Made by a program: the position numbers and the translations under genes. A DNA stretch of 36,991 bases from Planctomycetota bacterium. GTDB lineage: Bacteria > Planctomycetota > UBA1135 > GCA-002748355. Below, in pieces: positions 7,917 to 25,056 of this stretch; the first letter of the stretch is position 1, and each line of letters begins with the position of its first letter. The notes under the pieces were generated by a model. It was not told the DNA's origin. It saw only the letters and a program-made list of their open reading frames with translations, and searched no databases. The DNA is taken from contig JAGQQW010000023.1 in NCBI GenBank assembly GCA_020426005.1, forward strand, positions 1 through 36,991, read 5' to 3'.

Positions 7917-8741
7917 TTACTGCAGCAGCGAGAGCGCGCTCTGAGGCGCGACGTTCGCTTGGGCGAGGATCGACGTTGCCGCCTGCTGCAAGATCGAGTT
8001 CCTCGTCAATGCAGACGTTTCTTCTGCCACGTCGACGTCGCGGATGCGACTCTCGGCTGCGGACAGGTTTTCGATCTGGACGCCGAGGTTGTTGATCGTC
8101 GAGCTGAGCCGGTTCTGGACCGCGCCGAACGAACCGCGTTGACTCGAGATCTTGTCGATCGCGAGATCGATTGCCGCCATGGCAGCCGATGCGTTCGTGC
8201 CCGTGATCGAGAGACTATCGAGTCCGAGGCTCGTTGCGAGTGCCGGAGTCAAGCTGACACCGACCGTGTCGACACCGGTCGTCGTGCCGAAGCCGACCTG
8301 GAACGAGCTCTCGGACGCACTGCCGTCGAGGAGCTTGACGCTGTTGAACTCCGTCGACTTCGCAATGCGGTCGATTTCGTTTCGCAGCTGCGTGAACTCC
8401 TCGTTGAGCGTCGTCTTGTCCTTCGCGCTGACCGTGCCGTTGCTCGCCTGGACAGCGAGTTCGCGCATGCGGATCAAGATCGAGTTGGACTCGTTGAGCG
8501 CACCTTCGGCGGTTTGCACGAGGCTGATGCCGTCATTCGCGTTCCGCTTGCTCTGCGTGAGCGAGCGAACCTGCGAACGCAAGCGTTCGGAGATCGCGAG
8601 GCCCGCGGCGTCGTCTGCGGCAGTCGTGATGCGAAGGCCCGTCGACAGTCGACGGTAGCTCGTGCTGAGTCGAGTCGTCACCGACTCGAGGTTTCGCTGC
8701 GCATTGATCGCAGCGATGTTGGTGTTGACTCTCAGGCCCAT
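7917..8741 (-). CDS. fliC: Flagellin 3
   Basis: Third tandem flagellin and the promoter-proximal one, 274 residues from ATG 8741 with a strong AGGAG 7 nt upstream. N-terminal VNTNIAAINAQRNLESVTTR and STGLRITTAADDAAGLAI and C-terminal SRIRDVDVAEETSALTRN mark the D0 helices. It is nearly colinear with flagellin 2; it ends in LLQ where the other two end in LIG/LLG. It is divergent from the NtrC-type regulator at 9249 and has a long 5' gap with an inverted repeat, so it is the likely entry point for the filament genes. Confidence 0.95.
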   Translation of the reverse strand: MGLRVNTNIAAINAQRNLESVTTRLSTSYRRLSTGLRITTAADDAAGLAISERLRSQVRSLTQSKRNANDGISLVQTAEGALNESNSILIRMRELAVQASNGTVSAKDKTTLNEEFTQLRNEIDRIAKSTEFNSVKLLDGSASESSFQVGFGTTTGVDTVGVSLTPALATSLGLDSLSITGTNASAAMAAIDLAIDKISSQRGSFGAVQNRLSSTINNLGVQIENLSAAESRIRDVDVAEETSALTRNSILQQAATSILAQANVAPQSALSLLQ

Positions 8742-9248: not shown

Positions 9249-10709
9249 ATGGCAGTCGACGCACCGAGCGCTTCCGTTCTCAATACTCCGGTGACCCGAA
9301 ACAGCATGCCACGCATTCTCGTCGTGGATGATGAAGTCGGCATCCGCGAAGGACTTCAAGCGCTGCTCGCGCAGACCGGAGCATGGGTCGAGACCGCATC
9401 GAACTTGCTCGAGGCGTATCGCAGACAAGAACATCATCCGTTCGATCTCGTCTTTCTCGATCTGCGGCTGTCTGGTGAAGATGGCCTCTCTGGGCTCGAC
9501 CGCCTTCGTAGTGGCCCGACGCCTCCCGAAGTCGTGTTGCTGACCGGCCATGGAACGATCCAAGACGCGGTCGAAGCGATGCGAAAGGGAGCATGCGATG
9601 TCATCGAGAAGCCCTTCGAACCCGCGCATCTCCTTGCTGTCACCGAGCGCTGCCTAGAGACACGTCGGCTGCGAGTCCGCGTATCGCGTCTGCAAGGGCG
9701 TGTTCGTGAACTCACGTCGACCGAGCTCGTCGGACAGAGTAGCGAGATTCGCGAATTGCTCGACCGAGTGGGACAAGTCGCGAAGGCACCCGACACGACG
9801 ATCTTGATTCAAGGTGAGAGCGGCACGGGCAAGGAACTCGTTGCTCGCTGTATTCACGAGCGATCGAGTCGTGCAGACGGTCCCTTCGTGGCGGTCAATT
9901 GTGCGGCGCTCACCGAGAGTCTCCTCGAGGCGGAGTTGTTCGGCTACGAAGCCGGCGCATTCACCGGTGCCTCACGCGAAGGTAAGGACGGTCTCTTCGC
10001 AGCGGCGGACAATGGGACGTTGCTCCTCGACGAGATCGGCGAAATGCCGCTCAACCTCCAGGTGAAGCTGCTGCGCGTGCTCCAAGAGAAGAGCTATCGA
10101 CGGGTCGGTGGCGTCAAGGATCGTCCGGCTCGGGCGCGCATCGTTGCGGCGACCAACCGCAAGCTGAGCGAAGAAGTCGCCGCAGGTCGGTTCCGCGAGG
10201 ACCTCTACTATCGACTTCACGTCATCACACTCGAGGTACCTCCTCTGCGTGATCGTGTTGATGATGTGCCGTTGTTGGCGCACAACTTCCTCGACCTCTT
10301 CGGACGCCAGATGGGCAAGTCGCTGACTGGATTCAGCGAAGATGCGATGGAAACGCTTTGCGAGCACACGTGGCCCGGCAACGTGCGCGAGCTACGCAAC
10401 GCGATCGAGCATGCAGCCATCCTCTGCCCCGGTGGCCTGATCGAAGAAGCGTATCTTCCTCGTTGGGATGGCGGGTTGCCTGGTGGGACGGACATGATTC
10501 CACGCGATTCGTTCGCGGTGCCCGATGGTGAGCGATCCCTACGGGCGATCGAGAAACGACTCGTCGACCTCGTGCTCGAAGAGACCAACTGGAACATCAG
10601 TCGCGCTGCGAGCGTTCTCGGGATCAATCGAACGACGCTCTACAACAAGATCAAGCTGCACGATCTGGGTTCGCGCCGAGCGCACGGGCGCGCGCGAGTT
10701 CCGGTCTAG
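9249..10709 (+). CDS. Sigma54-dependent NtrC-family response regulator (first of two)
   Basis: A 486-residue activator with the full NtrC layout: receiver domain (residues 20-130; acidic pair D27-D28, phospho-acceptor D71, K121), AAA+ domain with Walker A GESGTGKE at 189-196, the sigma54-contact loop GAFTGA at 236-241 and Walker B LLLDEIGE near 258, and a Fis-type helix-turn-helix at about 447-473 (ISRAASVLGINRTTLYNKIK). It should hydrolyse ATP to open sigma54-RNA polymerase promoters once phosphorylated. ATG 9249 has GGAG 5 nt upstream; MPRILVV at 9306 is an alternative start. It is followed by a soluble histidine kinase, its likely partner, and is probably a flagellar regulator like FlrC/FlgR by position. 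Confidence 0.92.
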   Translation: MAVDAPSASVLNTPVTRNSMPRILVVDDEVGIREGLQALLAQTGAWVETASNLLEAYRRQEHHPFDLVFLDLRLSGEDGLSGLDRLRSGPTPPEVVLLTGHGTIQDAVEAMRKGACDVIEKPFEPAHLLAVTERCLETRRLRVRVSRLQGRVRELTSTELVGQSSEIRELLDRVGQVAKAPDTTILIQGESGTGKELVARCIHERSSRADGPFVAVNCAALTESLLEAELFGYEAGAFTGASREGKDGLFAAADNGTLLLDEIGEMPLNLQVKLLRVLQEKSYRRVGGVKDRPARARIVAATNRKLSEEVAAGRFREDLYYRLHVITLEVPPLRDRVDDVPLLAHNFLDLFGRQMGKSLTGFSEDAMETLCEHTWPGNVRELRNAIEHAAILCPGGLIEEAYLPRWDGGLPGGTDMIPRDSFAVPDGERSLRAIEKRLVDLVLEETNWNISRAASVLGINRTTLYNKIKLHDLGSRRAHGRARVPV

Positions 10710-10769: not shown

Positions 10770-11474
10770 ATGACCGCAGTCGCAGAAGTTTCAGCGATCC
10801 CCCGTAGTTCGAAGCCGGCGACGAAGCGCGCACGAGAAAGCGTCGCTCCGTCCGAGTTCGCGAGCCTGGCAGGCATGCTGGGCCATGAGCTCAAGAACCC
10901 GCTGGCATCCGCGATCACCAATATCGCTGTCGCAGCCGAGTTCTGCGAAGCGGACGATCCTCGTCGCGCGTTCATCGACCGTGCTTCGATCGATTTGGAG
11001 CGTGTGCGGATCTTGCTCGGTTCTTGCCTCGACCTGGCACGCTCCGAGACCGTTCGTCCGCAAGACGTCGAGGTCCGTGAATTCGTCGACCGGTTCGTCG
11101 ATTCCGATGTTTCCGTCGATGTCGATCCCACCTGCGTTCGATTCGCACCGATCGATGCACATCTGGTCCAGCGCGCGATCGAGAACGTGATCGAGAACGC
11201 GCGGCGCGAAGCGACCTCGATCCATGTTCGAGTCGAGTCGACGCGCAGCCATGTGTTGTTCGCGATCGAGGACGATGGTCCCGGAATCGACGCGTCGCGT
11301 CGCGAAGCGATCTTCGAGCCCTTCCAGAGTGGGCGCAACGGTACGGGTCTCGGGCTGTTCTTCGTGCGGCGGGTCTGCAACGCGCACGGAGGCGCAGTTC
11401 GTGTCACATCCGCGACGCCTTGTGGTGCACGTTTCGAACTCGCATTTCCACTCGAACCGTCGTCTCGAGCATGA
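10770..11474 (+). CDS. Soluble histidine kinase without a sensor domain
   Basis: A 234-residue kinase comprising only the DHp helix pair and the HATPase domain. The phospho-acceptor is H39 in LGHELKNPLAS; the ATPase carries an N box (IENVIENARREA), a G1 box (EDDGPGID), an F box (IFEPF) and a G2 box (GTGLGLFFVRR). There is no PAS domain, receiver or membrane segment, so it must get its signal from a protein partner, as NtrB-type or FlgS-type cytoplasmic kinases do. It starts 60 nt after the NtrC-type gene, and the next gene begins 15 nt after its stop. Likely partners are the NtrC-type activator before it and the receiver protein after it. Confidence 0.9.
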   Translation: MTAVAEVSAIPRSSKPATKRARESVAPSEFASLAGMLGHELKNPLASAITNIAVAAEFCEADDPRRAFIDRASIDLERVRILLGSCLDLARSETVRPQDVEVREFVDRFVDSDVSVDVDPTCVRFAPIDAHLVQRAIENVIENARREATSIHVRVESTRSHVLFAIEDDGPGIDASRREAIFEPFQSGRNGTGLGLFFVRRVCNAHGGAVRVTSATPCGARFELAFPLEPSSRA

Positions 11475-11489
11475 ATGGAGAGGCATCCG

Positions 11490-12194
11490 ATGTTCGGAAT
11501 CGACGTGATGTTGGTCGACGACGAGGACGGAATTCGAACGGCCTTGGCGGAGTTCCTGCGTCTGCACGGGTACCGCGTCGTCGATGTCGGCAGTGTCCGT
11601 GATGCGATCGAGTCCCTTTCGATCACGCGCCCTCGGCTGTTGATTTGCGACGAGCGACTCGGTGATGCATCGGGTACGGCGGTCATCGCGGACTACTCGA
11701 GCAAGCCGGACGCTGGTCGAGCAGCTCTGAGCACCGCGAATGAACGCCCTGACGTGACACGCTTCTTGGAGGCGCATCCAGAGGTCGATCGACTTCCGAA
11801 GCCGCTCGCCCCGAAGGCCCTGCTCGCATGGGTCGAGCAGGAAATGAACGTGAGTGGCTGCGATGCGAAGGACGGTGCCTTTCGACAGGAATCACTCGAA
11901 GCGGTCATCGATGACGAGGCATTGCGTCGACGTGTAGAGACCACTCTCGAATGGTTGTCTCCGTCCGAAGTCTGCGCGCTCGAAGTCGAGGAGAGTTGGA
12001 TTCGTATCGAGGTCGAATCGCACCACGCGGACACACTCGATCGAGCGTCCCGGAGCTTGCCTCGAGGATGTGATATCTGGCCACTCGAACGCGATGGCAG
12101 ATTCGCACTTCGCGTTCACAAGGTCGAACAGCCAGAGCGAACGACTTCGAGGTCGATGTTCTGGGCAGCTCCACTTCGAGAGGCCGTGCCGTGA
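11490..12194 (+). CDS. Response regulator with unrecognised C-terminal region
   Basis: A 234-residue protein. Residues 1-120 are a receiver domain: acidic pair D10-D11 in MLVDDED, probable phospho-acceptor D54 in LLICDERLGD, and K104 in LPKPL. Residues 125-234 match no output domain I recognise: there is no DNA-binding helix-turn-helix or AAA+ module, and the stretch is acidic and moderately hydrophobic. I chose ATG 11490 because GGAGAGG lies 6 nt upstream; ATG 11475, which touches the kinase stop, would add five residues. Its GTGA overlap with the next gene couples it to the TPR membrane protein, so the output may be protein contact with that module. This is inference. Confidence 0.85.
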   Translation: MFGIDVMLVDDEDGIRTALAEFLRLHGYRVVDVGSVRDAIESLSITRPRLLICDERLGDASGTAVIADYSSKPDAGRAALSTANERPDVTRFLEAHPEVDRLPKPLAPKALLAWVEQEMNVSGCDAKDGAFRQESLEAVIDDEALRRRVETTLEWLSPSEVCALEVEESWIRIEVESHHADTLDRASRSLPRGCDIWPLERDGRFALRVHKVEQPERTTSRSMFWAAPLREAVP

Positions 12195-12922
12195 GCAAAC
12201 CGAAGCGCAAGCGCGAATGGCGCAGCCTGGATTCGGCCGTAGCGGCCGTGCTCGTCGCCAATGTGTTGTTGCTCGCGGCGATTGTCGCGTGGCCCGGAGA
12301 TGCACCGCAACCAGGCACGTCCACGCAGGATCCATCGAGTGTGAGTGGCGATGGCGCTGCCGGAACCGCGGGCACGAATGGGCCTGCTGGACCCGGTGGA
12401 GTCGACGGTACTCGCGTACCGCTGTTGCCTAGGAACGAGCTGTGGCAGCGATCCCAGAAAGAAGCGGCAGCTGGACGGCTGCAAGCGGCAATCAGTTCCT
12501 TGCAACTCTTGTTGCGCGAAGAACCACGAATGGGAGAAGTCCCACGTCGCGCGGTGTGGTTGCAACTTTCGTATCTCGCAGGCATCGCAGGACGTGACGA
12601 GGACGCCGCGCGTTGGTTGCGACTGTCGAAAGCGAGTCTCGAAGGCGGTTTGGTCCCTGAAGAACTTCTGCGTCTCGCACGCGAAGCCGCGAACGCGAGG
12701 GACTGGAGTGAGTCTCGGCGCTACGCAGCGCGCTTCCTCTTGCAAAAGCGCCAGCTCGCGGGTGACTCCGAGGCGATGGTCGCCGAGGCGTACATGATGC
12801 TCGCCGATGGCTACCGGGACCAAGCGGAAGTTCCGTCCTCCGACACGGCGATCACCGCTCCAATCGATGCCTCCGGGTCGTCGGAACGCAGCGAATCGAC
12901 CCCGAGTGAGGGTAAGCGATGA
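12191..12922 (+). CDS. Single-pass membrane protein with Gly-X-Y linker and helical-repeat domain
   Basis: 243 residues from a GTG that overlaps the previous stop by 4 nt (GTGA). A basic N-terminus (residues 2-11) precedes one hydrophobic segment (15-35), so it is likely an inner-membrane anchor with the rest in the periplasm. Residues 53-73 have glycine at every third position (55, 58, 61, 64, 67, 70, 73), a short collagen-like Gly-X-Y run. Residues 85-215 are helical and TPR-like, with segments such as AGRLQAAISSLQLLL and DWSESRRYAARFLL. The tail is Ser/Glu-rich. I do not recognise the family. It is the first of three linked helical-repeat genes inside the flagellar regulatory operon. Confidence 0.75.
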   Translation: MSKPKRKREWRSLDSAVAAVLVANVLLLAAIVAWPGDAPQPGTSTQDPSSVSGDGAAGTAGTNGPAGPGGVDGTRVPLLPRNELWQRSQKEAAAGRLQAAISSLQLLLREEPRMGEVPRRAVWLQLSYLAGIAGRDEDAARWLRLSKASLEGGLVPEELLRLAREAANARDWSESRRYAARFLLQKRQLAGDSEAMVAEAYMMLADGYRDQAEVPSSDTAITAPIDASGSSERSESTPSEGKR

Positions 12923-14580
12923 CCATGGCGCGACGTTGCGTACGCATCGTGGTTGGATGCCTTGTAGCGGCTTTCATTGCCGTGCTGCCGGTGCATGCAC
13001 GCGCGCCAATCGCGATCCAGGATCGTCCACTCTTCGAAGTGGTCGAGACACTCGGCACCTTGCGATACGTGGCAGCCAATCGTTCCGCGGTGTCGGCATC
13101 CACGGCATTGCGAACGCTCGAGGCGATGGAGGTCTTCGTGCTGCGGTACGAGGATCCCGAGCTCGTGAATCTACTCGAGCGCAATACGATGACGTTGTCG
13201 TTCGATCGTATGGAAGCTGTCGCAGTCGCCGAGCTTTGCGCAGTCGCATCCGGACTCGACTTGATCACGGAGCGACAGCCGCCGGTCGATGGCAACCCTG
13301 GCAACCTCATCGCGACGGTCGTTCGTGCTCCGGTGCCGGACACGGATGCCGGGCGGGAGCGACTGCTCGACTGGGGATTGCGTTGGTATCGAAACCTACT
13401 CGAGAACGAGCTGTCGAGCGCGCGCATCAACGCCGACACGGAAGCGAAGATTCGGATCGATTCGGCATTGCTCGACATGGCTCGCGGCAATTGGTCAGCT
13501 GCCGCAGGTGGTTTTCGCTGGCTCGCGGATTCCAATCCATCGCATCCGTGGGTTCCCGAGGCTCTGTTGCGAGAAGCGCAATGTCGCCTTTCTGCTGGCG
13601 AAGCGAGCGATGCTGCCCAGCGCGCAGCTCGTGTGATGAAGCTCTATCGAGATGACCCAGTCGGTGCGAAGGCTGCGACCGTCTATGCGCGCGCGGCACT
13701 GGATCAGCATCGGCACGAACTCGAAGCCGGTCGTTTCATCGCAGCATCCACGCTCCTGGATTCGTTGGTCATCGAGATCGAGCTCTTCCTTCCGAGTTTT
13801 CGAGATCGCGCCGAGTATCCCGAGGTCTTGCTACTGCTAGGCGAAGCGCAACGTCGACGTGGCAAGCCGGACTTGGTGCTCGATGCACTCGCACGCCTCG
13901 AGTCCGTCGCCGATCCGATTCTGCTACCGCAGCAACAATGGGCTTCGACGACGTTCTTGCGCGGATGCGCCGGAATCATGCTCGGCAACCTCGATCGAGG
14001 GCGCGAGCGCTTGTGGCAATTCTTGCGAATCGCTCCGAATGATGGCCGGGCAGGAGTCGCGTGGTTGACGATCGCGCAGGCCGAACTGAGTATCGATCCA
14101 CTCGAAGCGATGTTCGCGGCGCGGAAAGCCGCAGAGAAGACGGCGTTCTTGACCGCCGCGGAGCGCGGCCAGGCGCTGACGATCGAGGCGAAAGCGGCGC
14201 TTCTACTCGGAGATACGCAAGGCGCGGTCGAACGTCTCGAGCGCGTGATTCGTGATCGAGGACCACGCAACGTACCGGATCTCGCCGTCGAGGTCGGCAG
14301 AGCCTTCATGGCACACGGATCGTTGGAGCGGGCCAAGTCGATCGTCCTTCCTCTGCAGGACGAACTCGGGATCCACGCCGATCATGCGAGGGTGATCATC
14401 CTCGAGTCCGAGATGCGGCAGGGTCAGCCGGGTGCCGTCGTTCGCCTTGCACCACGCTTTGCCGCACGAACTACGGATTCGGCTTCGCAGATCGAAATCT
14501 CGACATTGGTCGGTGACGCGTATCGGGCGCTCGGAATGAAGTCGGAAGCAGCACGTGCTTACGACGGGAGGATTCGATGA
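12919..14580 (+). CDS. Exported TPR-like repeat protein
   Basis: 553 residues; the ATG overlaps the preceding stop by 4 nt (ATGA). A signal peptide (MTMARRCVRIVVGCLVAAFI, continuing to AVLPVHARA) suggests export to the periplasm. Residues 170-550 consist of helix pairs typical of tetratricopeptide repeats, for example GNWSAAAGGFRWLADSNP, DAAQRAARVMKLYRDDP and LGMKSEAARAYD; such scaffolds bind proteins. The N-terminal 30-165 region is a separate, non-repeat domain. No catalytic motif is visible. It is coupled to its neighbours on both sides by ATGA overlaps, so the three proteins are probably made in fixed proportion and act together. Confidence 0.75.
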   Translation: MTMARRCVRIVVGCLVAAFIAVLPVHARAPIAIQDRPLFEVVETLGTLRYVAANRSAVSASTALRTLEAMEVFVLRYEDPELVNLLERNTMTLSFDRMEAVAVAELCAVASGLDLITERQPPVDGNPGNLIATVVRAPVPDTDAGRERLLDWGLRWYRNLLENELSSARINADTEAKIRIDSALLDMARGNWSAAAGGFRWLADSNPSHPWVPEALLREAQCRLSAGEASDAAQRAARVMKLYRDDPVGAKAATVYARAALDQHRHELEAGRFIAASTLLDSLVIEIELFLPSFRDRAEYPEVLLLLGEAQRRRGKPDLVLDALARLESVADPILLPQQQWASTTFLRGCAGIMLGNLDRGRERLWQFLRIAPNDGRAGVAWLTIAQAELSIDPLEAMFAARKAAEKTAFLTAAERGQALTIEAKAALLLGDTQGAVERLERVIRDRGPRNVPDLAVEVGRAFMAHGSLERAKSIVLPLQDELGIHADHARVIILESEMRQGQPGAVVRLAPRFAARTTDSASQIEISTLVGDAYRALGMKSEAARAYDGRIR

Positions 14581-15587
14581 TCGGATCCCGCGATCGCCAT
14601 GTCGCAGCGATTGCCGCGCTCGTCTGCATCGCCGCGTGCTCGCGAACTGCGTCGTCGCAGTCGTTCGAGTTGCGAGAGTCGATCGAAGGCAAGCTCCAGC
14701 GACTTCGTGGTGAACTCAAACAACTGCAGCACAAGCACGAAGTCGTATCGCAGCGGTGGCTCGATCTGATACGGCGTCGCGTCTCGCACGACTTGTTGGT
14801 TCCATTCAACGAGGACGATCTACTCGCTGGGATTCCGGCGGGCGATCCACTGCAACGCGAGTCACTCGAAGCACAGTTGGTCGAAGCCACCGAAACGACA
14901 CGCGCGCTTCGCGAAGCGTTGCAAGCCATGCGCCTCGATCTCGGTCGTGCCGTCGCAACCTATGAGTCGACGACGACAACGCCCATCGACGCGACGCAAT
15001 ACGCGCCCTCTCCCGCTGGTGCGACGAGCATCGATACGGACACGACGAGTCGCCCTGCGATGGATAGCACGGCCGAATCGATCGTTCCCGAGGACATCAG
15101 TCGCTTCTTCAGGGTTCCACGCGTCGCGAAGTCCGAGCAGGCTGAGATGTTCCACGGTCCACTTCCGTTCGCGTTCGACGAAGTTGCGAGTTCGCTGCCG
15201 AGCGATGCGAACGTCATCGTCATTGCGCCGTCGAATCGTGTGCTGCGTCGAGTCCAGAGCCTTCTCGATGCAGGCCTCACGCGCCGCGCACTCGAAGTGA
15301 TTCACGCTGCGGCGCCGGACGAAGCGACGCGCCCTCTTTCGCTACGTTTCTTGGAAGCCAAGGTCCTCGAGGCACGAGGTGCGAGCGACGAGGCAGCCGT
15401 CATCTACGACGCGTTGATCGAGCGTGACCAGGAACAGGTGGATAGCTCGGACGATGCGACGAGTGGCGACTCGGCAACGAAGGACGGTCCATGGGCGCGA
15501 GCGAGTCGAACGGCTCGTGATTCCCTGCGCTTCGAAAAACGCGTGACCGTCGATTCGCTGCCCAAGACCGATGGGATCAAGTGGTGA
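14577..15587 (+). CDS. Putative lipoprotein with coiled coil and helical repeats
   Basis: 336 residues; the ATG overlaps the preceding stop by 4 nt. The N-terminus resembles a lipoprotein signal, hydrophobic segment then IAAC with Cys21 as the candidate lipidated residue, so it may be anchored in a membrane facing the periplasm. Residues about 30-65 (ELRESIEGKLQRLRGELKQL) form a coiled coil, followed by a Thr/Ser-rich linker (150-175) and a TPR-like pair near 235-290 (LDAGLTRRALEVIHAAAPDE). I do not recognise the family. It ends 4 nt before the PAS histidine kinase gene and closes the three-gene helical-repeat block. Confidence 0.72.
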   Translation: MIGSRDRHVAAIAALVCIAACSRTASSQSFELRESIEGKLQRLRGELKQLQHKHEVVSQRWLDLIRRRVSHDLLVPFNEDDLLAGIPAGDPLQRESLEAQLVEATETTRALREALQAMRLDLGRAVATYESTTTTPIDATQYAPSPAGATSIDTDTTSRPAMDSTAESIVPEDISRFFRVPRVAKSEQAEMFHGPLPFAFDEVASSLPSDANVIVIAPSNRVLRRVQSLLDAGLTRRALEVIHAAAPDEATRPLSLRFLEAKVLEARGASDEAAVIYDALIERDQEQVDSSDDATSGDSATKDGPWARASRTARDSLRFEKRVTVDSLPKTDGIKW

Positions 15588-15591
15588 TCGC

Positions 15592-16701
15592 ATGAGCGGG
15601 CTTCGAGAAGTTGCTGACGCGCCATGGACCGAACTCCTTTCGCGCTACGAAACAACGGCGACCAGACTCGAAAGTGCGTATGCCGAACTGCGGTCTCATG
15701 CCGTTCGAATCGAGGGAGAACTCGCCGACAAGAACCGCCTCCTCGCCGCGAGTGTCGAGGAGATGGACCGCGTCCTCGAGGCGCTGCCACTCGCAGTGTT
15801 CCGGCAACGTGGCAACGCAATCTCTCCGATCAATGCTGCAGCCCGTGTCGTGCTGGAGACGCACGGACGCGTGCCTGCATTGCAGGGTGATCCAGAGTCG
15901 GTCGTCACCGAGATCGGAGTCGACGGCAAGTCTCGGTGCTTCGAGAGGCGAGTCGTCACGACGGAAGACGGAGCCTTGCTGTTCTTGGAAGACCGAACGC
16001 GTCAGATCGCGATGGAGGCCGAGTTGCGGCGCCTCGAGCGCCTTGGCGGCCTCGCCGAACTCGCGCTCGGCATCGCGCACGAGATTCGGAATCCGCTCAA
16101 CGGACTGGGAGGCTTCGCAAGCCTGCTCCAGCGAACGCCAGATTCGCCGCGTGCCTCCGAATGGGCCGGCAAGATCGCCGAGGGATCACGACGCGTCGAA
16201 TCGATCGTGCGCAGCCTGTTGGACTTCGCACGACCGGAGCGCGCCTCCGAGACCGTCGTGCTGCCGGTGGCCGAGTGGTTCGATGTCGCAGCGCGTGAGC
16301 TGCCGGTCGAAATCGACGAAGGGGCGGGCCGCGTCCGCGTGGTCGGATCTCGGGGACCTCTCGAACAAGTCTTGTCCAACCTGACTCGAAACAGCAAAGA
16401 GGCCGGCGCCACTCGCTGCAAGGTTCGCATGCTCGTGCATGCATCCGAGTCGGTGACCATTCGCATCAGCGATGACGGTCCGGGCATAGACACGACAGTT
16501 GCGGAGCGCATCTTCGACCCGTTCGTCGGGACGAAAGAGAGTGGCTCCGGACTCGGCCTCGCTTTCGCCGCGCGGGCGATCGAGCGCATGGGGGGCGTTC
16601 TGCGCCTCGCTTCGGAACTAGACGACGAGGACCTTCACGGTGCAGGGTTCGAACTGACCCTTCGCACGGCGCCAGGCGATCGCATCGAGAGCGACGCATG
16701 A
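15592..16701 (+). CDS. PAS-domain histidine kinase (FlrB/FleS-like)
   Basis: 369 residues with no membrane segment: an N-terminal coiled coil (about 20-60), a degenerate PAS-like region (about 58-140, EMDRVLEALPLAVFRQRGN), then DHp with H163 in LGIAHEIRNPLNGLGGF, and the HATPase domain with N box (LSNLTRNSKEAG), G1 (SDDGPGID), F box (IFDPF) and G2 (GSGLGLAFAARAIE). This layout matches FlrB/FleS, the cytoplasmic kinases that phosphorylate the NtrC-type class III flagellar activator. The start at ATG 15592 is 4 nt after the previous stop; ATG 15571 is a weaker option. It overlaps the next regulator by 4 nt, which strongly implies they are cognate. Confidence 0.92.
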   Translation: MSGLREVADAPWTELLSRYETTATRLESAYAELRSHAVRIEGELADKNRLLAASVEEMDRVLEALPLAVFRQRGNAISPINAAARVVLETHGRVPALQGDPESVVTEIGVDGKSRCFERRVVTTEDGALLFLEDRTRQIAMEAELRRLERLGGLAELALGIAHEIRNPLNGLGGFASLLQRTPDSPRASEWAGKIAEGSRRVESIVRSLLDFARPERASETVVLPVAEWFDVAARELPVEIDEGAGRVRVVGSRGPLEQVLSNLTRNSKEAGATRCKVRMLVHASESVTIRISDDGPGIDTTVAERIFDPFVGTKESGSGLGLAFAARAIERMGGVLRLASELDDEDLHGAGFELTLRTAPGDRIESDA

Positions 16702-18074
16702 CGGCATTCCGCGTCCTCCTTGCCGATGATGATGGATTGTCGCGCGACTTCCTTCGCGAGGCACTCGAAGCTGCCGGTTGCCAGGTGACCGCCGTGGACG
16801 ATGGGCATGCCGCGATCCGCAAGCTCGCGAATGGTGGTGAGTTCGACGTCGTCGTCAGTGATCTCCGGATGCCGCGCAAGAGCGGCTTCGATGTATTGGA
16901 AGTGGCTTCGAGCCACGACCTCGCGTTCGTGCTGATCACTGCGTACGGCAGCGCCGATGTCGCCGTCGATGCACTCCGGAAGGGTGCGGACGACGTGTTG
17001 TTCAAGCCCGTCGATCTCGAGCAGCTGGAGACAGCTCTCGCGAGGCTCGAAAAGCGGGGACGGCTCGTCGCGGAGAACGCATACCACCGAGAGTCTGCAC
17101 TGGCCTCGAATGCACTCGTGCACAGTCCTGCGCTCCTCGACGTGTTTCGGGTCGTGGATCGCGTCGCCGCGAGCCCGACGACCGTGCTCGTCACCGGTGA
17201 AAGTGGTACGGGAAAAGAAGTCGTTGCGACCGAGTTGCATCGTCGTAGTCCACGCTCGTCAGGTCCCTTCATCCGTGTCAACTGTGCTGCTCTTCCCGAG
17301 AGTCTGATCGAGAGTGAGCTCTTCGGTCACGAGGTAGGAGCGTTCACCGGTGCTGCGAGTCGCAAGCTCGGTCGCTTCGAACTCGCTCATGGGGGAACTC
17401 TCCTGCTCGACGAGATCGGCGAGCTGCCGGCGGGGTTGCAGGCCAAGCTGCTGCGCATCTTGGAGACGTCGACGTTCTCGAGGGTCGGCGGGGTCGAATC
17501 GATCGAAGTCGACGTGCGCGTGATCGCGTCGACGAATGCCGACCTCGAAGCGATGGTGGCCGCCGGGACGTTCCGTGCCGACCTCTACTACAGGTTGCAC
17601 ATCGTGCCGATCGAGGTGCCTCCGCTGCGCGAACGTCGCGAGGACATCCTGCCGTTGGCCGAGCTATTCCTCGCCGAGGAGAGTCGTCGACATGGCGTGC
17701 CGCATCCAGAACTCGAACCCGAGGCTCGGTCCCTGCTCTACCACTATGCGTGGCCGGGCAACGTGCGGGAACTCCGCAACCTGATGCAGCGTGCCTTCCT
17801 GTTGTGCGAAGGAGGGCGGATCACACATCAGCGTCTCGCGACGTGGCTCGATGACGGTCCGCGGACTACCTCGACGAACAACGTGGACGAAGCACGTGCG
17901 ACTGGAGCCTTCCCCGAAAGCTGGGTCGGCACGTCCCTGCGTGAAGTCGAAGATGCGTTCATTCTCGCGACACTCGAGTCCGTCGACGGGAAGCGATCCG
18001 AAGCCGCCCGGCTGCTCGGCGTTGCACCGCGCACGCTCTACAACCGCCTACGCTCGATCGACGTAGAGAGTTGA
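16698..18074 (+). CDS. Sigma54-dependent NtrC-family response regulator (second; FlrC/FleR-like)
   Basis: 458 residues with receiver (acidic residues D10-D12, phospho-acceptor D55 in VVVSDLRMPRKSGFD, K103), AAA+ domain with GESGTGKE at 167-174, GAFTGA at 214-219 and LLLDEIGELP, and a C-terminal Fis-type helix-turn-helix (SEAARLLGVAPRTLYNRLR). All residues needed for sigma54 activation are present. It overlaps the kinase gene by 4 nt and lies just upstream of flgB, the position of FlrC/FleR in other bacteria, so it is likely to switch on basal-body or filament genes at sigma54 promoters. Which promoters those are could not be settled from this window. Confidence 0.93.
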   Translation: MTAFRVLLADDDGLSRDFLREALEAAGCQVTAVDDGHAAIRKLANGGEFDVVVSDLRMPRKSGFDVLEVASSHDLAFVLITAYGSADVAVDALRKGADDVLFKPVDLEQLETALARLEKRGRLVAENAYHRESALASNALVHSPALLDVFRVVDRVAASPTTVLVTGESGTGKEVVATELHRRSPRSSGPFIRVNCAALPESLIESELFGHEVGAFTGAASRKLGRFELAHGGTLLLDEIGELPAGLQAKLLRILETSTFSRVGGVESIEVDVRVIASTNADLEAMVAAGTFRADLYYRLHIVPIEVPPLRERREDILPLAELFLAEESRRHGVPHPELEPEARSLLYHYAWPGNVRELRNLMQRAFLLCEGGRITHQRLATWLDDGPRTTSTNNVDEARATGAFPESWVGTSLREVEDAFILATLESVDGKRSEAARLLGVAPRTLYNRLRSIDVES

Positions 18075-18178: not shown

Positions 18179-18532
18179 GTGATCGACTTCGACCGGAGCT
18201 TCGGCTTCTACGAGACGGTGCTGCGTGGCATCACAGCCAGACAGCAGGTCACATCGCTCAACATCGCCAACCAGAGCGTTCCCGGGTATCGCACTCGCGA
18301 GGTCCGCTTCGAAGAGGTCCTCCAGCAAGCGCTCGACACGGGCACCGATCCCGAATCGGTCGAGTTCGAACCGACCGTCGTCGGCACGTTGCCGCTCAAA
18401 GCGAACGGCAACGACGTGGACCTGGAGCGTGAGTGGATGCAGATGGAGGCCAACAAACTCCAGCACGACATCTTTGCGCGCGCGACCGGTTCGTCGCTTC
18501 GCGGAATCATGACCGCGATTCGGAGTCGATGA
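18179..18532 (+). CDS. flgB: Flagellar basal-body rod protein FlgB
   Basis: FlgB is a proximal rod subunit assembled in the periplasm on the MS ring. The 117-residue protein has FYETVLRGITARQQVTSLNI followed by ANQSVPGYRTREVRFEEVL, the flagellar rod N-terminal signature, and the C-terminal helix region. I chose GTG 18179, preceded by GGAG at 7 nt, which gives the usual short N-terminus; the ATG at 18107 would add 24 atypical residues. It starts 104 nt after the second NtrC-type gene and heads the flgBC-fliEFGHIJ series. Confidence 0.93.
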   Translation: MIDFDRSFGFYETVLRGITARQQVTSLNIANQSVPGYRTREVRFEEVLQQALDTGTDPESVEFEPTVVGTLPLKANGNDVDLEREWMQMEANKLQHDIFARATGSSLRGIMTAIRSR

Positions 18533-18954
18533 CGATGAGTGACGTCTTTTCGGGCTTCTCGGCTTCGATTTCGGCAATGGCTGCCGAGCGGAAGCGCATG
18601 CAGGTCATCTCGTCGAACATCTCGAACGCGGGCACGGTCGACGAGAGTGGCCCGTATGTGCGCAAGTCGGTGATCTTCGAAGAAGTGTTCGACGAGGCAC
18701 AGCGTTCGAACATCGCGTCCGGTGTTCGCGTCAAAGATGTCTACGAGGACAGGGTGAGCGAGCATCCGATCATCCACAATCCTGGACACATCGCCGCCGA
18801 CAAAGAGGGGTTCGTCAAGCTCCCCAACGTCAACATCGTCCAGGAACTCGTCGACATGATGATCGCGCGACGTTCCTACGGTGCCAACGTCGCTGCCTTC
18901 CAAACGTGGCGCAGCATGTTGCGTGACGCCATCAGCAACATCGGGACGCGGTGA
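18529..18954 (+). CDS. flgC: Flagellar basal-body rod protein FlgC
   Basis: FlgC is a second proximal rod subunit. The 141-residue protein carries MAAERKRMQVISSNISNAGT, the rod-family N-terminal signature, and the C-terminal motif VNIVQELVDMMIARRSYGAN shared by rod and hook proteins. The ATG at 18529 overlaps the flgB stop (ATGA). A second in-frame ATG at 18535 has better spacing (9 nt) from the GGAG at 18522, so the true start may be two codons later. The length is typical. Confidence 0.95.
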   Translation: MTMSDVFSGFSASISAMAAERKRMQVISSNISNAGTVDESGPYVRKSVIFEEVFDEAQRSNIASGVRVKDVYEDRVSEHPIIHNPGHIAADKEGFVKLPNVNIVQELVDMMIARRSYGANVAAFQTWRSMLRDAISNIGTR

Positions 18955-18959
18955 TCACC

Positions 18960-19301
18960 ATGAGCCTGATTCGCGATGACGGTATCGGTTCTGCATTCGG
19001 TTCGTTCGGCGGCCGGATCCAGGAAACGCGTTTGCCAGGTGATGGCGCACGCAAGCCGCTGTCCGTCGACGACACGGAGAAGGCGTCGTTCGGTGATCTC
19101 CTCAGCGATGGAATCCAGTCCGTCGCTGCTCATCAAGATCAGGTACGAATCGAACTCGAGAAGTTCGCAACCGGGAAGAGCGATGGCGTCCAAGACGTGA
19201 TGCTCGCCATGGGCAAGTCCGAAGTCGCGTTCGCGCTGATGCTCGAAGTGCGCAACAGGCTCGTCGATGCGTGGCGCGAGATCACGCGCATTCAGGCCTG
19301 A
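18960..19301 (+). CDS. fliE: Flagellar hook-basal body complex protein FliE
   Basis: FliE joins the MS ring to the rod. The protein (113 residues from ATG 18960) ends in the family's conserved helix, VMLAMGKSEVAFALMLEVRN followed by RLVDAWREITRIQA, which marks FliE clearly. The N-terminal part is variable, as usual. A GTG at 18951, overlapping the flgC stop by 4 nt, is an alternative start that adds three residues. It lies between flgC and fliF in the common flgB-flgC-fliE-fliF order. Confidence 0.92.
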   Translation: MSLIRDDGIGSAFGSFGGRIQETRLPGDGARKPLSVDDTEKASFGDLLSDGIQSVAAHQDQVRIELEKFATGKSDGVQDVMLAMGKSEVAFALMLEVRNRLVDAWREITRIQA

Positions 19302-19329
19302 TCGACACTTCGTTTCCGTCTGACGACCA

Positions 19330-20862
19330 ATGCCGACCTTCCTTTCCGAGATCCTGACGCAGCTCCGCAACATCTGGGCTCAGCTCAGTGGCGGTCAGCG
19401 ATTGATGACAGCTGCGGTCCTGTCGGGCGTCTTGCTCGGAATGATCGGATTGATCTTCTTCGCGACGCGGCCGGATTATCGCGCGATCGGCAACGATCTC
19501 GACGGGGAAGACAAGCGGATGGCGGTCGCTGCCTTCGAGGAGGCGAGGATCGATTTCCGCATCGAGAACACGGTCTTGATGGTCAACGGCAGTCAATACA
19601 GCGAAGCCGAGAAAGCGCTGACCGCCAAAGGGCTGCGCGGTACCGACTCGTCCACGCGAGAGGACAGCACCTCGAGCTTCACGCAGGACCGCGATCATCG
19701 GAGCTACACGCTTCAGCTCAGCAAGATCCGGCGCGTCGAGGCGCAGATCCGCAAGTTGGGCGGTGTGCGAAGCGTGTTGGTCAACGTCTACGAGCCGAAC
19801 GGCCCCAACATCCTGCGAAAGCAGGAGCCGCGTCGCGCGAGCGTGATGCTCGACCTCGCGCGCAGCTCGTCGTTCCAGGGGGTCGCGAGTGCGGCTCGAG
19901 GAATCGTCGCGAGCAGCCTCGGGATCTCGCCTGACGAAGTCCAGGTCACGGACAGTGAGCATCAGGTGCTGAATGGCGCTTCCGGTTCTGGTGGCACGGG
20001 GTTCTCGCCGCTCATCGATCTGCAGAACCAGACGTCGGCGATGCTCACGATGCGCGTCCGGTCGATCCTCGAGCGTATGTGGCCGGGCAAGACACTCGTC
20101 AGCGTCAACGCGACGTATGACAACAAAGTCGTCGAGAGCCACAAGAAGATCGTCTCGACCGACAAGGTCGTGCTCAAGGAGAAGAGCTACAAGACCAAGG
20201 ACTCGACCGGGTCGGCCGCGAGCGGCGACCCGAATGGCGTCGGTGCAACGTCCAACACCTCTGCCGCCGGCAACGGAGCCGAGAAGAACTCGTCGATCAC
20301 GCAGACCGACCGCGACTACCAGCCGATCATCGGCGAGGAAAGCCTGCGCGTTCTCGCACCGGACATCGAGCAGTTGTCGGTCTCGTTGATGATCGATGAG
20401 TCGCTCGCCAGCATGAAGCAGGACATCGAGAATCAGGTCAAGAACGCGATTGGATGGAAGCAGGGTCGTGACTCCGAGGTCACGGCGACGGCCACGAAGT
20501 TCGAAGAATTCACGGACCTCCCCGAGCCGAACGGCACCGTAGCGCTGATCAAGGAGTGGGCGCCGCTCGCTGGTCAGATTCTCTCCGTGCTCTTCGTGCT
20601 GTTCTTCCTCAAGGGCTTGCTCAAGCGCAACAAGGCGACGGGCGCAGGGGCGGCTGGTACGGCCCGTGCGGCTGCTGCCGGCGGGACGGCGGCGCGCTCG
20701 GGCTCGGGAGGGGCTGTGGATGGCGGCGCCGCCGGCGAAGGCGAAGACTCAGTCAAGCAGACGATGAAGCTGCGCAAGGAGATCGAGAAGGTCGTAGCCG
20801 ACGATCCCGCCAGTGTGAGCCGGATGCTCGAGTCGTGGCTCTCCAACAAGGAGCCAGCGTGA
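19330..20862 (+). CDS. fliF: Flagellar MS-ring protein FliF
   Basis: FliF forms the MS ring in the inner membrane, the base for rod assembly and for the FliG rotor. The 510-residue protein has a first transmembrane segment (about 25-46), the ring-building motif region YSEAEKALTAKGLRGTDSST and LSKIRRVEAQIRKLGGVRSV, the periplasmic domain with SSLGISPDEVQVTD, a second transmembrane segment (about 416-434), and a cytoplasmic tail ending in a FliG-binding helix (IEKVVADDPASVSRMLESWL). Before that helix is an Ala/Gly-rich linker (about 440-475). It starts 28 nt after fliE with only a weak ribosome site. Confidence 0.95.
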   Translation: MPTFLSEILTQLRNIWAQLSGGQRLMTAAVLSGVLLGMIGLIFFATRPDYRAIGNDLDGEDKRMAVAAFEEARIDFRIENTVLMVNGSQYSEAEKALTAKGLRGTDSSTREDSTSSFTQDRDHRSYTLQLSKIRRVEAQIRKLGGVRSVLVNVYEPNGPNILRKQEPRRASVMLDLARSSSFQGVASAARGIVASSLGISPDEVQVTDSEHQVLNGASGSGGTGFSPLIDLQNQTSAMLTMRVRSILERMWPGKTLVSVNATYDNKVVESHKKIVSTDKVVLKEKSYKTKDSTGSAASGDPNGVGATSNTSAAGNGAEKNSSITQTDRDYQPIIGEESLRVLAPDIEQLSVSLMIDESLASMKQDIENQVKNAIGWKQGRDSEVTATATKFEEFTDLPEPNGTVALIKEWAPLAGQILSVLFVLFFLKGLLKRNKATGAGAAGTARAAAAGGTAARSGSGGAVDGGAAGEGEDSVKQTMKLRKEIEKVVADDPASVSRMLESWLSNKEPA

Positions 20863-20884
20863 TGAACAGTGCAAGGAGACGCAC

Positions 20885-21886
20885 GTGCTGAACGACGCAC
20901 ACAAGATCGCTGCTCTCCTACTCGCGATCGATCAGGATCTCGCCGCGGACGTTCTGCGTCACATGGGCGAGGACCAGCTCGACATGGTCACACGCGCGAT
21001 GAAGGAACTCGAAGAGATCGCCGTCGACGAGACGGATCTCCATTCGATCTTCACCGAAGCACGCGGTCGTCTGCGCAGTGCCGGGCTCGCGTTGGGCGAC
21101 GTCGGAAGCGTCATCGCTGGCGTGTTGCGCAAAGCGTTCGGCAAGGACCGTGGCAACGAGATGATCAAGGAGGTCGAGAAGCACACGCTCGCGACGCGTC
21201 CGTTCTCGGTCTTCGAACAGATTCCGTCCGAGGACTTGGCGGTCCTGCTGCAGGACGAGCATCCTCAGATCACTTCCGTGTTCCTCGCGAACCTCGCGAC
21301 CGAGAAGTCGGGAGAAGTCATTGCCGCGTTCGACGAGAGCGTGCGCGCCGATATCGTTCACCGGATCGCGACGCTCGGACGTTCGTCCCCCGAAGTCGTG
21401 CAGCGCGTCGTCGACGTGCTGCGGACGAAAGTGCGCGGTCTGGGATTGTCGACGAGCCGCTCCGAGCCGAAGGCTTGGATCAAGAAGGCTGCCGGGATCT
21501 TGATTCAGAGCGGCGGCGAGAAGGAAATGCTCGCGACGATCTCCGAGAAGGACGAGAGCATCGCGACGCAGATTCGCGAAGAGATGTTCACGTTCGACGA
21601 CATCGGAAGCCTCGACAAGAAGTCGATGCAGAAGATCCTCGGCTCGATCGACACCGGCGTGCTCGCAATCTCGCTCAAGGCCTGCTCGACGGAGACGGAG
21701 ACGAACATCTTCGAAAACCTGAGCAAGCGTGCCCGCGAGATGGTCGTCGACGAACGCGATGCTCTCGGCCCCACGGCGCTCAGCGACGTCGTGGCTGCAC
21801 AGAAGACGATTCTCGCGCAAGTCCGGGACTTGATCGAGTCGGGTGAGGTTCGTGCCGTCGGTGGTGCGGCCGAGGAGCTCGTATGA
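20885..21886 (+). CDS. fliG: Flagellar motor switch protein FliG
   Basis: FliG is the rotor protein that receives torque from the MotA stator. The 333-residue protein shows the N-terminal domain that binds FliF (HKIAALLLAIDQDLAADVLR), the middle armadillo domain with the EHPQ signature (LLQDEHPQITSVFLANLATE), and the C-terminal torque domain (FTFDDIGSLDKKSMQKILGS). The C-terminal charged helix is intact (ISLKACSTETETNIFENLSK). The start is GTG 20885 with AAGGAG 6 nt upstream. Its stop overlaps fliH by 4 nt. Confidence 0.96.
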   Translation: MLNDAHKIAALLLAIDQDLAADVLRHMGEDQLDMVTRAMKELEEIAVDETDLHSIFTEARGRLRSAGLALGDVGSVIAGVLRKAFGKDRGNEMIKEVEKHTLATRPFSVFEQIPSEDLAVLLQDEHPQITSVFLANLATEKSGEVIAAFDESVRADIVHRIATLGRSSPEVVQRVVDVLRTKVRGLGLSTSRSEPKAWIKKAAGILIQSGGEKEMLATISEKDESIATQIREEMFTFDDIGSLDKKSMQKILGSIDTGVLAISLKACSTETETNIFENLSKRAREMVVDERDALGPTALSDVVAAQKTILAQVRDLIESGEVRAVGGAAEELV

Positions 21887-23795: not shown

Positions 23796-24238
23796 GACGC
23801 TACCGGTTCGAACTCGAATCCGTTCTGCGACTAGCGCGCCTCGAATACAAACAAGCGCTCGCTGCCGCCGGTCAGTGGATCGAGCGACTCGATATGTTGC
23901 GACAGCGCGGCGAACTGATGCGAAGAATCGTACTCGGAGAAGCCGACAACGCGGAGAAGTCGCGCGCCCCGGGACTCTACGAGGCATATCGAGTCACGCT
24001 GCTCGACTCGATGCGCCAGAACGACCTCGAAGTCAGCCAAGCGGAGGCTCGACTACGAGAATGCCGGCGAGTCCTGGATGCGAAGCGGTCACGGCGCGAC
24101 GCGCTAGAGAAGCTCGATGAGCGCCGCCATGCAGCGTGGAGGGTCGAGTTCGAAAAACACGAGCAACGTGAACTCGAAGAACTCGCATCGCTCAGATCGA
24201 CTTCCGCACGTAGCTCAATTGGGAGGGCCGACAGATGA
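23792..24238 (+). CDS. fliJ: Flagellar export protein FliJ
   Basis: FliJ is a small coiled-coil protein that sits in the centre of the FliI hexamer like the F1 gamma subunit. The 148-residue protein starts MRRYRFELESVLRLARLEYK, the family's hallmark start (F..L..VL..R), and continues as one long charged coiled coil. It follows fliI with an ATGA overlap and overlaps the MotE-like gene by 4 nt, both supporting the call. Confidence 0.9.
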   Translation: MRRYRFELESVLRLARLEYKQALAAAGQWIERLDMLRQRGELMRRIVLGEADNAEKSRAPGLYEAYRVTLLDSMRQNDLEVSQAEARLRECRRVLDAKRSRRDALEKLDERRHAAWRVEFEKHEQRELEELASLRSTSARSSIGRADR

Positions 24239-25056
24239 GTGGAGTCGTACAAGGGATCCTGATCGCGACCGCGGGCCTCGTCGTCTTTGCAGCGTCCGTG
24301 CTGGGAATGTTGGCGGTCTCGGGGCGTCTCAACGCCGAAGGCGTCAAAGACGTTCCTGTCCTCAATCAGATCCTCAAAGAAGAGGAACCGACTGGCAAGG
24401 AGGCGAACGGAGCCGGACAGAAGGTCGGTGGGACTGCCGGGAAGGGCGATGGTGTCGCAACGGAGGCCGGCTTCCGGAAGCCGCAAGACGGCACCTCGAA
24501 GGCTGATGCCGATGGACAAGGCAAAACGCGGCTCGACCCTCGTGGGATGAATGCAGCGCGACGCAAGATGTTCGAGTTCGAGAGCTTTGGCGCACCGACG
24601 TCTGCGAAAGAACTCGAACGGCTCCAGCAGAAGTTGTCCGAAACCGTCCGCACCAACGAGCTCCAGACCGCAGCCCTGAGTAAGTCACAACTCGAACTCG
24701 AGATTCGAGAGCAGGATCTCAACTATCGCCGCGAGTCGATCCAGAAGCTGATGGACGAAGTCGAGCGACGGATCGAGACCCTGCGATCGATGCGTGAGCA
24801 GTTCGAGCGAGACGTGACCGTGCTCACTCGTGAAGAGGCGCGCAACGTCAAGCGTCAAGCCGAACAGCTCGGTGCCATGGAGCCGCCGAAGGCGGCCGAA
24901 CTCCTGCTCGAGCTCGGTCTCGACAAAGAGGATTTGGCCGTGAAGCTCCTCGTGTCGATGGATGTGGAGCAGGCATCCGGCATCCTCGCGATGGTCGATG
25001 CCAAGCGCGGTGCGAGGTTGATCGAGCGCGCGACACGTGTTCTGCGTCGCGACTGA
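24235..25056 (+). CDS. MotE-like protein (MgtE-N-type helical domain, membrane anchored)
   Basis: 273 residues: one N-terminal membrane segment (5-29), a Gly/Lys-rich linker (50-100), a long coiled coil (about 121-197), and a C-terminal helical domain (198-273, EEARNVKRQAEQLGAMEPPK, then AAELLLELGLDKEDLAVKLL) of the kind shared by the MgtE N-terminal domain and FliG. Proteins of this form are annotated as MotE, a chaperone of the stator, or as flagellar stator-associated proteins, and commonly lie after fliJ. The ATG overlaps fliJ by 4 nt. It ends 144 nt before motA. Identity as true MotE is not proven. Confidence 0.75.
   Translation: MSGVVQGILIATAGLVVFAASVLGMLAVSGRLNAEGVKDVPVLNQILKEEEPTGKEANGAGQKVGGTAGKGDGVATEAGFRKPQDGTSKADADGQGKTRLDPRGMNAARRKMFEFESFGAPTSAKELERLQQKLSETVRTNELQTAALSKSQLELEIREQDLNYRRESIQKLMDEVERRIETLRSMREQFERDVTVLTREEARNVKRQAEQLGAMEPPKAAELLLELGLDKEDLAVKLLVSMDVEQASGILAMVDAKRGARLIERATRVLRRD

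What the first reader, a model, noticed from the sequence alone, without database searches (positions are those of the whole stretch)
12191..15587. Three linked, exported helical-repeat proteins embedded between two two-component systems in a flagellar operon
A membrane-anchored protein, a secreted TPR-like protein and a putative lipoprotein are joined by 4-nt overlaps and lie between a kinase/response-regulator pair and a second kinase/NtrC pair, directly upstream of flgB. None resembles known flagellar parts. All are predicted to leave the cytoplasm, so they could form an envelope complex that senses or supports flagellar assembly (for example a periplasmic scaffold or ring) and reports to the regulators. 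Seen: overlaps, signals, repeats. Inferred: joint function and flagellar role.
Basis: partly seen in the sequence, partly recalled or inferred. Interest (0 to 1): 0.7.

Follow-up and report, generated by a model that had tools for sequence, protein, structure and literature searches.

The report
Planctomycete flagellar motor scaffold trio
Three neighbouring genes in a Planctomycetota bacterium occur, in its relatives, almost only where flagellar genes occur too, and their repeat-rich proteins, predicted to be exported, likely form a membrane-tied scaffold around the flagellar motor, which would give a first handle on how these motors are built.

Summary
The trio is real: T1 (12191-12922), T2 (12919-14580) and T3 (14577-15587), joined by 4-nt overlaps between two two-component systems. 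In 154 genomes of the window's order, T2 and the rotor gene fliG occur together in 98; T2 alone in 5, fliG alone in 5, neither in 46. Of 103 genomes with T2, 102 have T3, in 100 directly behind T2. In families f7/f8 (plus G002), wherever T2 and fliG share a contig they lie 6.8-9.1 kb apart (51 of 51); in family f6 the trio sits apart from fliG. Outside the order, T1 and T2 are fused into one protein in families f24 and f22. All three match TPR proteins as family profiles. T1 has one predicted membrane helix, T2 a small secretin-N0/STN-like domain plus a TPR superhelix, T3 a coiled coil plus TPRs. T3 is not a conserved lipoprotein (lipobox-like strings in 3 of 35). Best reading: an inner-membrane-anchored periplasmic motor scaffold that works like Campylobacter PflA/PflB, without proof of homology. 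Reporting to the kinases is possible but untested.

The parts
12191..12922 (+). T1, 243 aa: short N-tail, one predicted TM helix, linker, TPR-like C-domain
12233..12289 (+). predicted TM helix of T1 (residues 15-33)
   Evidence: hydropathy; charge +4 before and -2 after it, so the TPR part is predicted to be periplasmic
12919..14580 (+). T2, 553 aa: hydrophobic N-terminus, STN/secretin-N0-like domain, TPR superhelix
13027..13326 (+). STN-like alpha/beta domain of T2 (about residues 37-136)
   Evidence: AF2 secondary structure; Pfam STN in 5 of 16 f7/f8 homologues at E<=1, best 2.6e-5; full-length profile match to those homologues
13345..14562 (+). TPR superhelix of T2 (residues 143-548)
14577..15587 (+). 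T3, 336 aa: hydrophobic N-terminus, coiled-coil hairpin, flexible linker, short TPR domain
14661..14972 (+). two long helices of T3 (residues 29-70 and 91-132), predicted with low confidence
   Evidence: mean pLDDT 57
15234..15545 (+). C-terminal TPR-like domain of T3 (residues 220-323; block pLDDT about 76-91 over 221-290)
9306..10709 (+). ntrC0: receiver + sigma-54 activation domain + Fis-type HTH; kept upstream of the trio
10770..11474 (+). HK1: histidine kinase, no predicted TM
11475..12194 (+). RR1: receiver domain with no recognised output domain
15571..16701 (+). HK2: histidine kinase, no predicted TM
16698..18074 (+). NtrC2: receiver + sigma-54 activation domain + HTH
18179..21886 (+). 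flgB (probable GTG start 18179), flgC, fliE, fliF, fliG, following the trio and the second kinase/NtrC pair
   Evidence: flgB start from the sequence and from relatives' matches
24235..25056 (+). candidate FlgY/MotE/FlbB (E-ring) protein behind fliJ: TM, coiled coil, MgtE_N-like end

Best explanation
T1, T2 and T3 are three linked TPR-type proteins, predicted to be exported or membrane-anchored, that likely form an inner-membrane-anchored scaffold in the periplasm around the planctomycete flagellar motor. T1 would be the anchor: one TM helix, TPR part outside. T2 would be the spoke: a TPR superhelix with a small STN/secretin-N0-like domain at its N-terminus, held by T1 (in other families T1 and T2 are one polypeptide). 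T3 would dimerise through its coiled coil and cap or cross-link the spokes. The scaffold would place the MotA/MotB stators at the rotor, probably together with the FlgY-like protein at 24235-25056, and is encoded with the early regulators so that it can be made before the rod. Shown: gene order, conservation, co-occurrence with fliG, T1-T2 fusions, TPR character. Predicted: export, membrane topology, STN-like fold. Inferred: complex formation, position at the motor, stator role.
For: Co-occurrence with fliG in the order: 98 both, 5 T2 only, 5 fliG only, 46 neither of 154; the T2-only genomes are 71-84% complete; of the fliG-only genomes three are 76-78% complete and two (G008, G009, families f2 and f3) are 89 and 93%. 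Family f1: 7 of 8 have both, G004 has neither. T3 in 102 of 103 genomes with T2, directly behind it in 100. T2 and fliG on one contig in f7/f8 plus G002: 51 of 51 within 6.8-9.1 kb. Phylum sample: of 28 genomes with T2 at E<=1e-20, 27 have fliG; the exception G370 is a 1071-aa frame matching only the TPR part. T1-T2 fusions: L062 (T1 1.6e-12, T2 4.9e-43) and L094 (T1 1.8e-8, T2 2.5e-34), weaker in L065 and L090. Profile-profile matches keep T1, T2 and T3 distinct across families (3.6e-6, 8.5e-26, 8.2e-16; best cross match 1.3e-4). TPR matches for all three; T2 model pLDDT 86.5. 29 of 30 T1 proteins have a predicted TM and none of HK1, RR1, HK2, NtrC2, ntrC0 has one. Known precedent: PflA spokes and PflB rim are TPR proteins that scaffold stators (PMC12222027, passages).
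Against: No localisation, interaction or motility data. T3 model is weak (pLDDT 57). T1 was not folded. PflA structure 9hmf appears only at rank 42 with TM 0.26, no better than unrelated TPR proteins. In family f6 the trio is not near flgB-fliG (28 of 28 not within 12 kb). T2 is not universal in the phylum: 14 of 27 assessable sampled fliG loci lack it, and 6 of the 12 hits are long TM-anchored TPR proteins without the STN region.
Confidence: 0.62

Rival explanations
1. The trio is an assembly sensor: T2 and T3 read the state of the basal body in the periplasm and T1 carries the signal through the membrane to the soluble kinases HK1 and/or HK2, gating sigma-54-dependent flagellar genes.
For: Tight, conserved placement between two TCSs; only T1 crosses the membrane while both kinases lack TM helices; T1 of families f7/f8 carries a cytoplasmic (D/E)DLF(D/E/N)(F/L) motif in 12 of 12 (sequences, by eye; 11 of 12 by the script, which skipped the one protein without a called TM). 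Flagellar TCSs that depend on MS ring and rotor are known (PMC7064773, abstract and outline).
Against: L031 keeps the trio without HK1/RR1/HK2/NtrC2 nearby; HK2 and NtrC2 are present without a detected T2 in L098, L100, L101, L102 and L105; the window's own T1 has only a 14-residue cytoplasmic tail without the motif; known flagellar kinases of this type sense cytoplasmic MS-ring/rotor parts.
Confidence: 0.15
2. The trio is a periplasmic assembly helper: a chaperone or cell-wall-side factor that lets rod, P-ring or stators pass or fold, and is not part of the finished motor.
For: TPR proteins and coiled-coil/TPR proteins such as CpoB/YbgF serve this way; T2 matches YbgF and BamD models weakly, far below cut-off.
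Against: One polypeptide joining anchor and superhelix, and the constant three-gene set, fit a stoichiometric part better. No enzyme or peptidoglycan-binding domain was found.
Confidence: 0.15
3. The trio only rides along with flagellar regulators and serves another envelope function.
For: In f6 it is not next to flgB-fliG; five incomplete genomes have T2 but no fliG found.
Against: Near-perfect presence/absence match with fliG.
Confidence: 0.04

Closest known systems
PflA/PflB of Campylobacter and Helicobacter (proximal disk spokes and rim)
   Same: PflA: exported, small beta-containing N-domain plus long TPR superhelix; PflB: TM segment plus TPRs; both in the periplasm, bound to each other, scaffolding stators (PMC12222027 and PMC11870540, passages). 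T2 and T1 have the same general layout.
   Different: T2's N-domain is predicted alpha/beta STN-like, not an AMIN beta-sandwich; T1 is short (243 aa against about 820 for PflB); a third protein T3; T1-T2 fusions in other planctomycetes; no sequence homology shown.
MotK/MotC of alphaproteobacteria and FlcB of Borrelia
   Same: TPR proteins of the periplasmic motor scaffold (PMC13023049 and PMC8609358, passages); MotK has a small N-terminal AMIN domain before its TPRs.
   Different: No sequence relation shown; gene context differs; STN-like instead of AMIN.
TPR proteins near flagellar clusters (survey in PMC11870540)
   Same: That survey counts TPR proteins within five genes of flagellar clusters as possible PflA homologues in about 52% of flagellated species (section 10 read). 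T2 fits that description.
   Different: The survey looked with Pfam TPR_1 (PF00515), which does not match the window's T2 at E<=1; its main text has no word beginning 'planctomyc'. Its supplementary tables were not seen.
CpoB/YbgF (Tol-Pal)
   Same: Coiled coil followed by TPRs, like T3.
   Different: T3 has no NCBIfam match to it, has a long linker, and sits in a flagellar cluster.
FlgS/FlgR, FlrB/FlrC, FleS/FleR
   Same: Soluble kinase plus sigma-54 activator next to flagellar genes, like HK2/NtrC2.
   Different: Here the kinase gene follows a periplasmic trio; dependence on MS ring or rotor not testable here.

Membership tests
PflA | exported protein | tested here: met
   hydrophobic N-terminus of T2, hydropathy only
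PflA | long TPR superhelix | tested here: met
PflA | N-terminal beta-sandwich (AMIN) | tested here: not met
   model gives b-b-a-b-a-b-a-b-b; Pfam STN, not AMIN, in 5 of 16 homologues
PflA | fold match to solved PflA/PflB | tested here: inconclusive
   9hmf chain K at rank 42, TM 0.26; not shown among the 50 VIA rows
PflA | forms radial spokes, binds PflB and FlgY | not testable with these tools
   needs cryo-ET and binding assays
PflB | TM segment plus TPRs | tested here: met
   T1; TPR part short
[quoted passage not shown]
   T1 was not folded
STN / secretin N0 domain | Pfam PF07660 match | tested here: inconclusive
   window T2 none; 5 of 16 f7/f8 homologues at E<=1, best 2.6e-5; fused L094, L062 and L090 none
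TPR proteins (T1, T2, T3) | match of the family profile to TPR structures | tested here: met
   T1 1e-13, T2 2.6e-53, T3 2.5e-48 against a designed TPR protein
lipoprotein (T3) | conserved lipobox cysteine | tested here: not met
   lipobox-like in 3 of 35
CpoB/YbgF (T3) | NCBIfam model match | tested here: not met
   no such match for T3 at E<=0.1
FlgSR/FlrBC-type flagellar TCS (HK2/NtrC2) | kinase without TM plus sigma-54 activator beside flagellar genes | tested here: met
FlgSR/FlrBC-type flagellar TCS (HK2/NtrC2) | activity depends on MS ring and rotor | not testable with these tools
   needs genetics
FlgY/MotE/FlbB (24235-25056) | MgtE_N-like end | tested here: inconclusive
   no Pfam match in the window protein; homologue in L088 27.8 bits against a cut-off of 25.9, homologue in L094 20.1

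The most novel reading that the evidence does not exclude
Planctomycetota motors carry their own envelope scaffold, a T1-T2-T3 spoke with a secretin-derived STN domain, whose membrane anchor T1 also reports scaffold completion to the soluble kinases through a cytoplasmic DLF-type tail: a motor part and an assembly checkpoint in one, from which the window's genus has lost the tail.
Probability: 0.12. Interest if true: 0.8.

Novelty: new variant of a known kind. Interest (0 to 1): 0.55.

Why it matters
Motor diversity is known mostly from Proteobacteria, Campylobacterota and Spirochaetota; main texts and passages seen here on complex motors (PMC11870540, PMC12222027, PMC13023049) have no word beginning 'planctomyc'. 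If right, Planctomycetota add a TPR motor scaffold with a different N-domain and with anchor and spoke fused in some families, a direct test of whether spoke-type scaffolds are ancient or were invented repeatedly. It also names three gene targets and one E-ring candidate that a single deletion and cryo-ET study could check.

Tried and rejected
Lipoprotein reading of T3: rejected (3 of 35). Sigma-54 promoter before flgB or ntrC0: none with the GG/GC core and up to 3 mismatches; the looser pattern is no commoner than chance in the window (12 against 9.94 expected). G019 hit (L041): a short TPR match with no window gene around it, dropped. The first-pass order search with A1 listed weak TPR hits in many genomes; I did not count those and repeated the search with A4 at E<=1e-20. 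Early HMMs missed the trio in L057 (G033) and L058 (G081); A4 found T2 there later. L051 and L054 are short contigs. L037 was left out of the T1 alignment, and L035 and L037 out of A4 and A5. T2 start codons were chosen by me, often the one that overlaps the T1 stop, so the overlap counts (T1/T2 17 of 19, T2/T3 17 of 19 in f1/f6; T1/T2 9 of 12 in f7/f8 with 3 more by 1 nt) lean towards overlaps. L078 looked like a fusion but its T2 starts at its own N-terminus. Sampling of fliG loci: every fourth of the listed places (about 150 by my count, 38 taken); 7 not fetched (six too near a contig start, one with T2 already known on another contig), 4 cut short, 27 assessable: 12 with T2 (6 of them long TM-anchored TPR proteins without the STN region), 1 with T3 at a contig end (counted as neither), 14 without. 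An earlier choice of 17 further loci was not random and is not used for rates. Fisher's p ignores phylogeny and is not used. Paper searches listed no paper on a planctomycete flagellar scaffold; preprint servers and supplements were not searchable.

Full report
What is there. Between the flagellin gene (7917-8741, minus strand) and flgB the plus strand carries ntrC0, HK1, RR1, T1, T2, T3, HK2 and NtrC2, nearly all overlapping or abutting. The regulators are clear by Pfam: HK1 and HK2 are HisKA/HATPase kinases, RR1 is a receiver with no recognised output domain, ntrC0 and NtrC2 are receiver/sigma-54 activators. FlgB, FlgC, FliE, FliF, FliG, FliH, FliI, FliJ, MotA, two MotB-like proteins and FliL follow (flgB only weakly by Pfam but by clear matches to relatives).

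What the three proteins are. T1 has one predicted TM helix and a TPR-like C-domain; T2 a hydrophobic N-terminus, a small domain and TPRs; T3 a hydrophobic N-terminus, two long helices, a linker and a short TPR domain. Taken alone the window's T1 and T3 have no Pfam match. As family profiles all three match designed TPR proteins (T1 1e-13, T2 2.6e-53, T3 2.5e-48). The AlphaFold2 model of T2 (7 sequences in the alignment) has mean pLDDT 86.5 and shows an alpha/beta domain at residues 39-136 and a TPR superhelix at 143-548. Its closest solved matches are generic TPR superhelices; the N-domain was not tested by those searches. In families f7/f8 5 of 16 T2 homologues match Pfam STN, best 2.6e-5, and the profile of f1/f6 T2 aligns with theirs over nearly the whole length. 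The T3 model is poor overall (pLDDT 57), with a better C-terminal TPR part. T3 is not a conserved lipoprotein (3 of 35).

Conservation and link to flagella. In the first relatives search 20 of 61 genomes matched; apart from the own genome and one short TPR match (G019), 18 relatives have a full-length T2, all in families f1 and f6. In 17 of 18 the trio lies between HK1/receiver and HK2/NtrC2; L031 keeps ntrC0 and the trio only. Families f7 and f8 carry distant homologues in the same place, before HK2, NtrC2 and flgB-fliG; profile-profile comparison confirms each of T1, T2, T3 against its own counterpart (3.6e-6, 8.5e-26, 8.2e-16). Across 154 genomes of the order, T2 (E<=1e-20) and FliG (over Pfam's cut-off) give 98 both, 5 T2 only (completeness 71-84%), 5 FliG only (G008 89%, G009 93%, G065 78%, G077 77%, G109 76%), 46 neither. 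T3 (E<=1e-8) is found in 102 of the 103 genomes with T2 and lies directly behind it in 100; in the two f7 genomes its matched part starts about 600 nt behind; G033 has none. G070 has a T3-profile match without T2. T2 and fliG share a contig in 51 of the 64 f7/f8 (plus G002) genomes having both, always 6.8-9.1 kb apart. In f6, 28 of 28 have them apart: 27 on other contigs and G020 40 kb away on the same contig; there a phosphoesterase gene follows NtrC2 in the two loci checked (L028, L033). The 33 rows of A4 come from these same genomes, so detection of T2 is partly by construction; its match with FliG is not.

Beyond the order. In 294 genomes of the phylum (at least 80% complete, apart from the own genome), 28 have a T2 match at E<=1e-20 and 27 of these have FliG. 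In a systematic sample of fliG loci 12 of 27 assessable ones have a T2-profile match upstream; six of the 12 are 800-1100-aa TM-anchored TPR proteins in which only TPR positions match, so they may be analogues rather than T2. Families checked without a nearby T2 include f12, f16, f28, f37, f62, f67 and f78, one or two loci each; family f30 has one locus without (L079) and three with the long form (L080, L103, L104). T1 and T2 are one polypeptide in L062 (family f24) and L094 (family f22), with weaker evidence in L065 (f24) and L090 (f74). This is the strongest hint that T1 and T2 act as one unit.

The name Planctomycetota rests: a T3 homologue is deposited as a hypothetical protein of a Planctomycetota bacterium on a 20,900-base contig, the length of the G103 contig (L043) in the same order.

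How it likely works. HK1, HK2, RR1 and both NtrC proteins have no predicted TM, so T1 is the only membrane-spanning member of the group. The best fit is a scaffold: T1 in the inner membrane, T2 as a TPR spoke held by T1, T3 dimerising and bracing. In Campylobacter PflA (small N-domain plus TPR superhelix) wraps its N-domain around TPR protein PflB and the pair scaffolds the stators (PMC12222027, passages); the inner scaffold there assembles before the rod (PMC11870540, passages). The window also encodes a candidate for the E-ring protein FlgY behind fliJ (24235-25056): its homologue in L088 passes the MgtE_N cut-off (27.8 against 25.9 bits), the one in L094 does not, and the window protein itself has no match. 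FlgY genes are said to lie mostly beside fliJ or fliK (PMC13023049, passages). Complex formation and the stator role are inferred.

Regulatory reading. T1 proteins of f7/f8 carry a (D/E)DLF(D/E/N)(F/L) motif in their cytoplasmic tail (12 of 12 by eye; 11 of 12 by script). A link to the kinases is therefore conceivable. Against it: L031 has the trio without them, several loci have HK2 and NtrC2 without a detected T2, and the window's own T1 has only a 14-residue tail. Known flagellar TCSs depend on the secretion system, MS ring and rotor (PMC7064773, abstract and outline).

Verdict. Observation confirmed; flagellar role strongly supported by co-occurrence; scaffold mechanism likely but inferred; novelty: a new variant of the known kind 'periplasmic TPR scaffold of flagellar motors'.

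Noticed in passing
window 24235-25056: Candidate FlgY/MotE/FlbB E-ring protein behind fliJ: TM, coiled coil, MgtE_N-like end; homologues in L088 and L094 lie next to motA.
   Followed up: partly
window 26009-26749 and 26759-27424: Two MotB-like genes in a row, the second with the MotB plug but no OmpA domain match; a similar pair in L088 and L094.
   Followed up: no
L042-L061, T1 genes: Conserved acidic DLF-type motif in the cytoplasmic tail of T1 in families f7/f8; family f6 shows an L..LM pattern instead (by eye); the window's genus lacks the tail.
   Followed up: partly
G048:C44:24905-26377: A second full-length T2 paralogue (E 3.1e-88) on the other side of fliG from the first.
   Followed up: no
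window 11475-12194: RR1 has a receiver and about 115 further residues with no recognised output domain; its counterparts in relatives are longer (about 290 aa by ORF length).
   Followed up: no
L080, L103, L104, L106 (other families): Long TM-anchored TPR proteins with an acidic cytoplasmic tail before NtrC or HK2 genes, possibly a T1-type replacement of the trio.
   Followed up: partly
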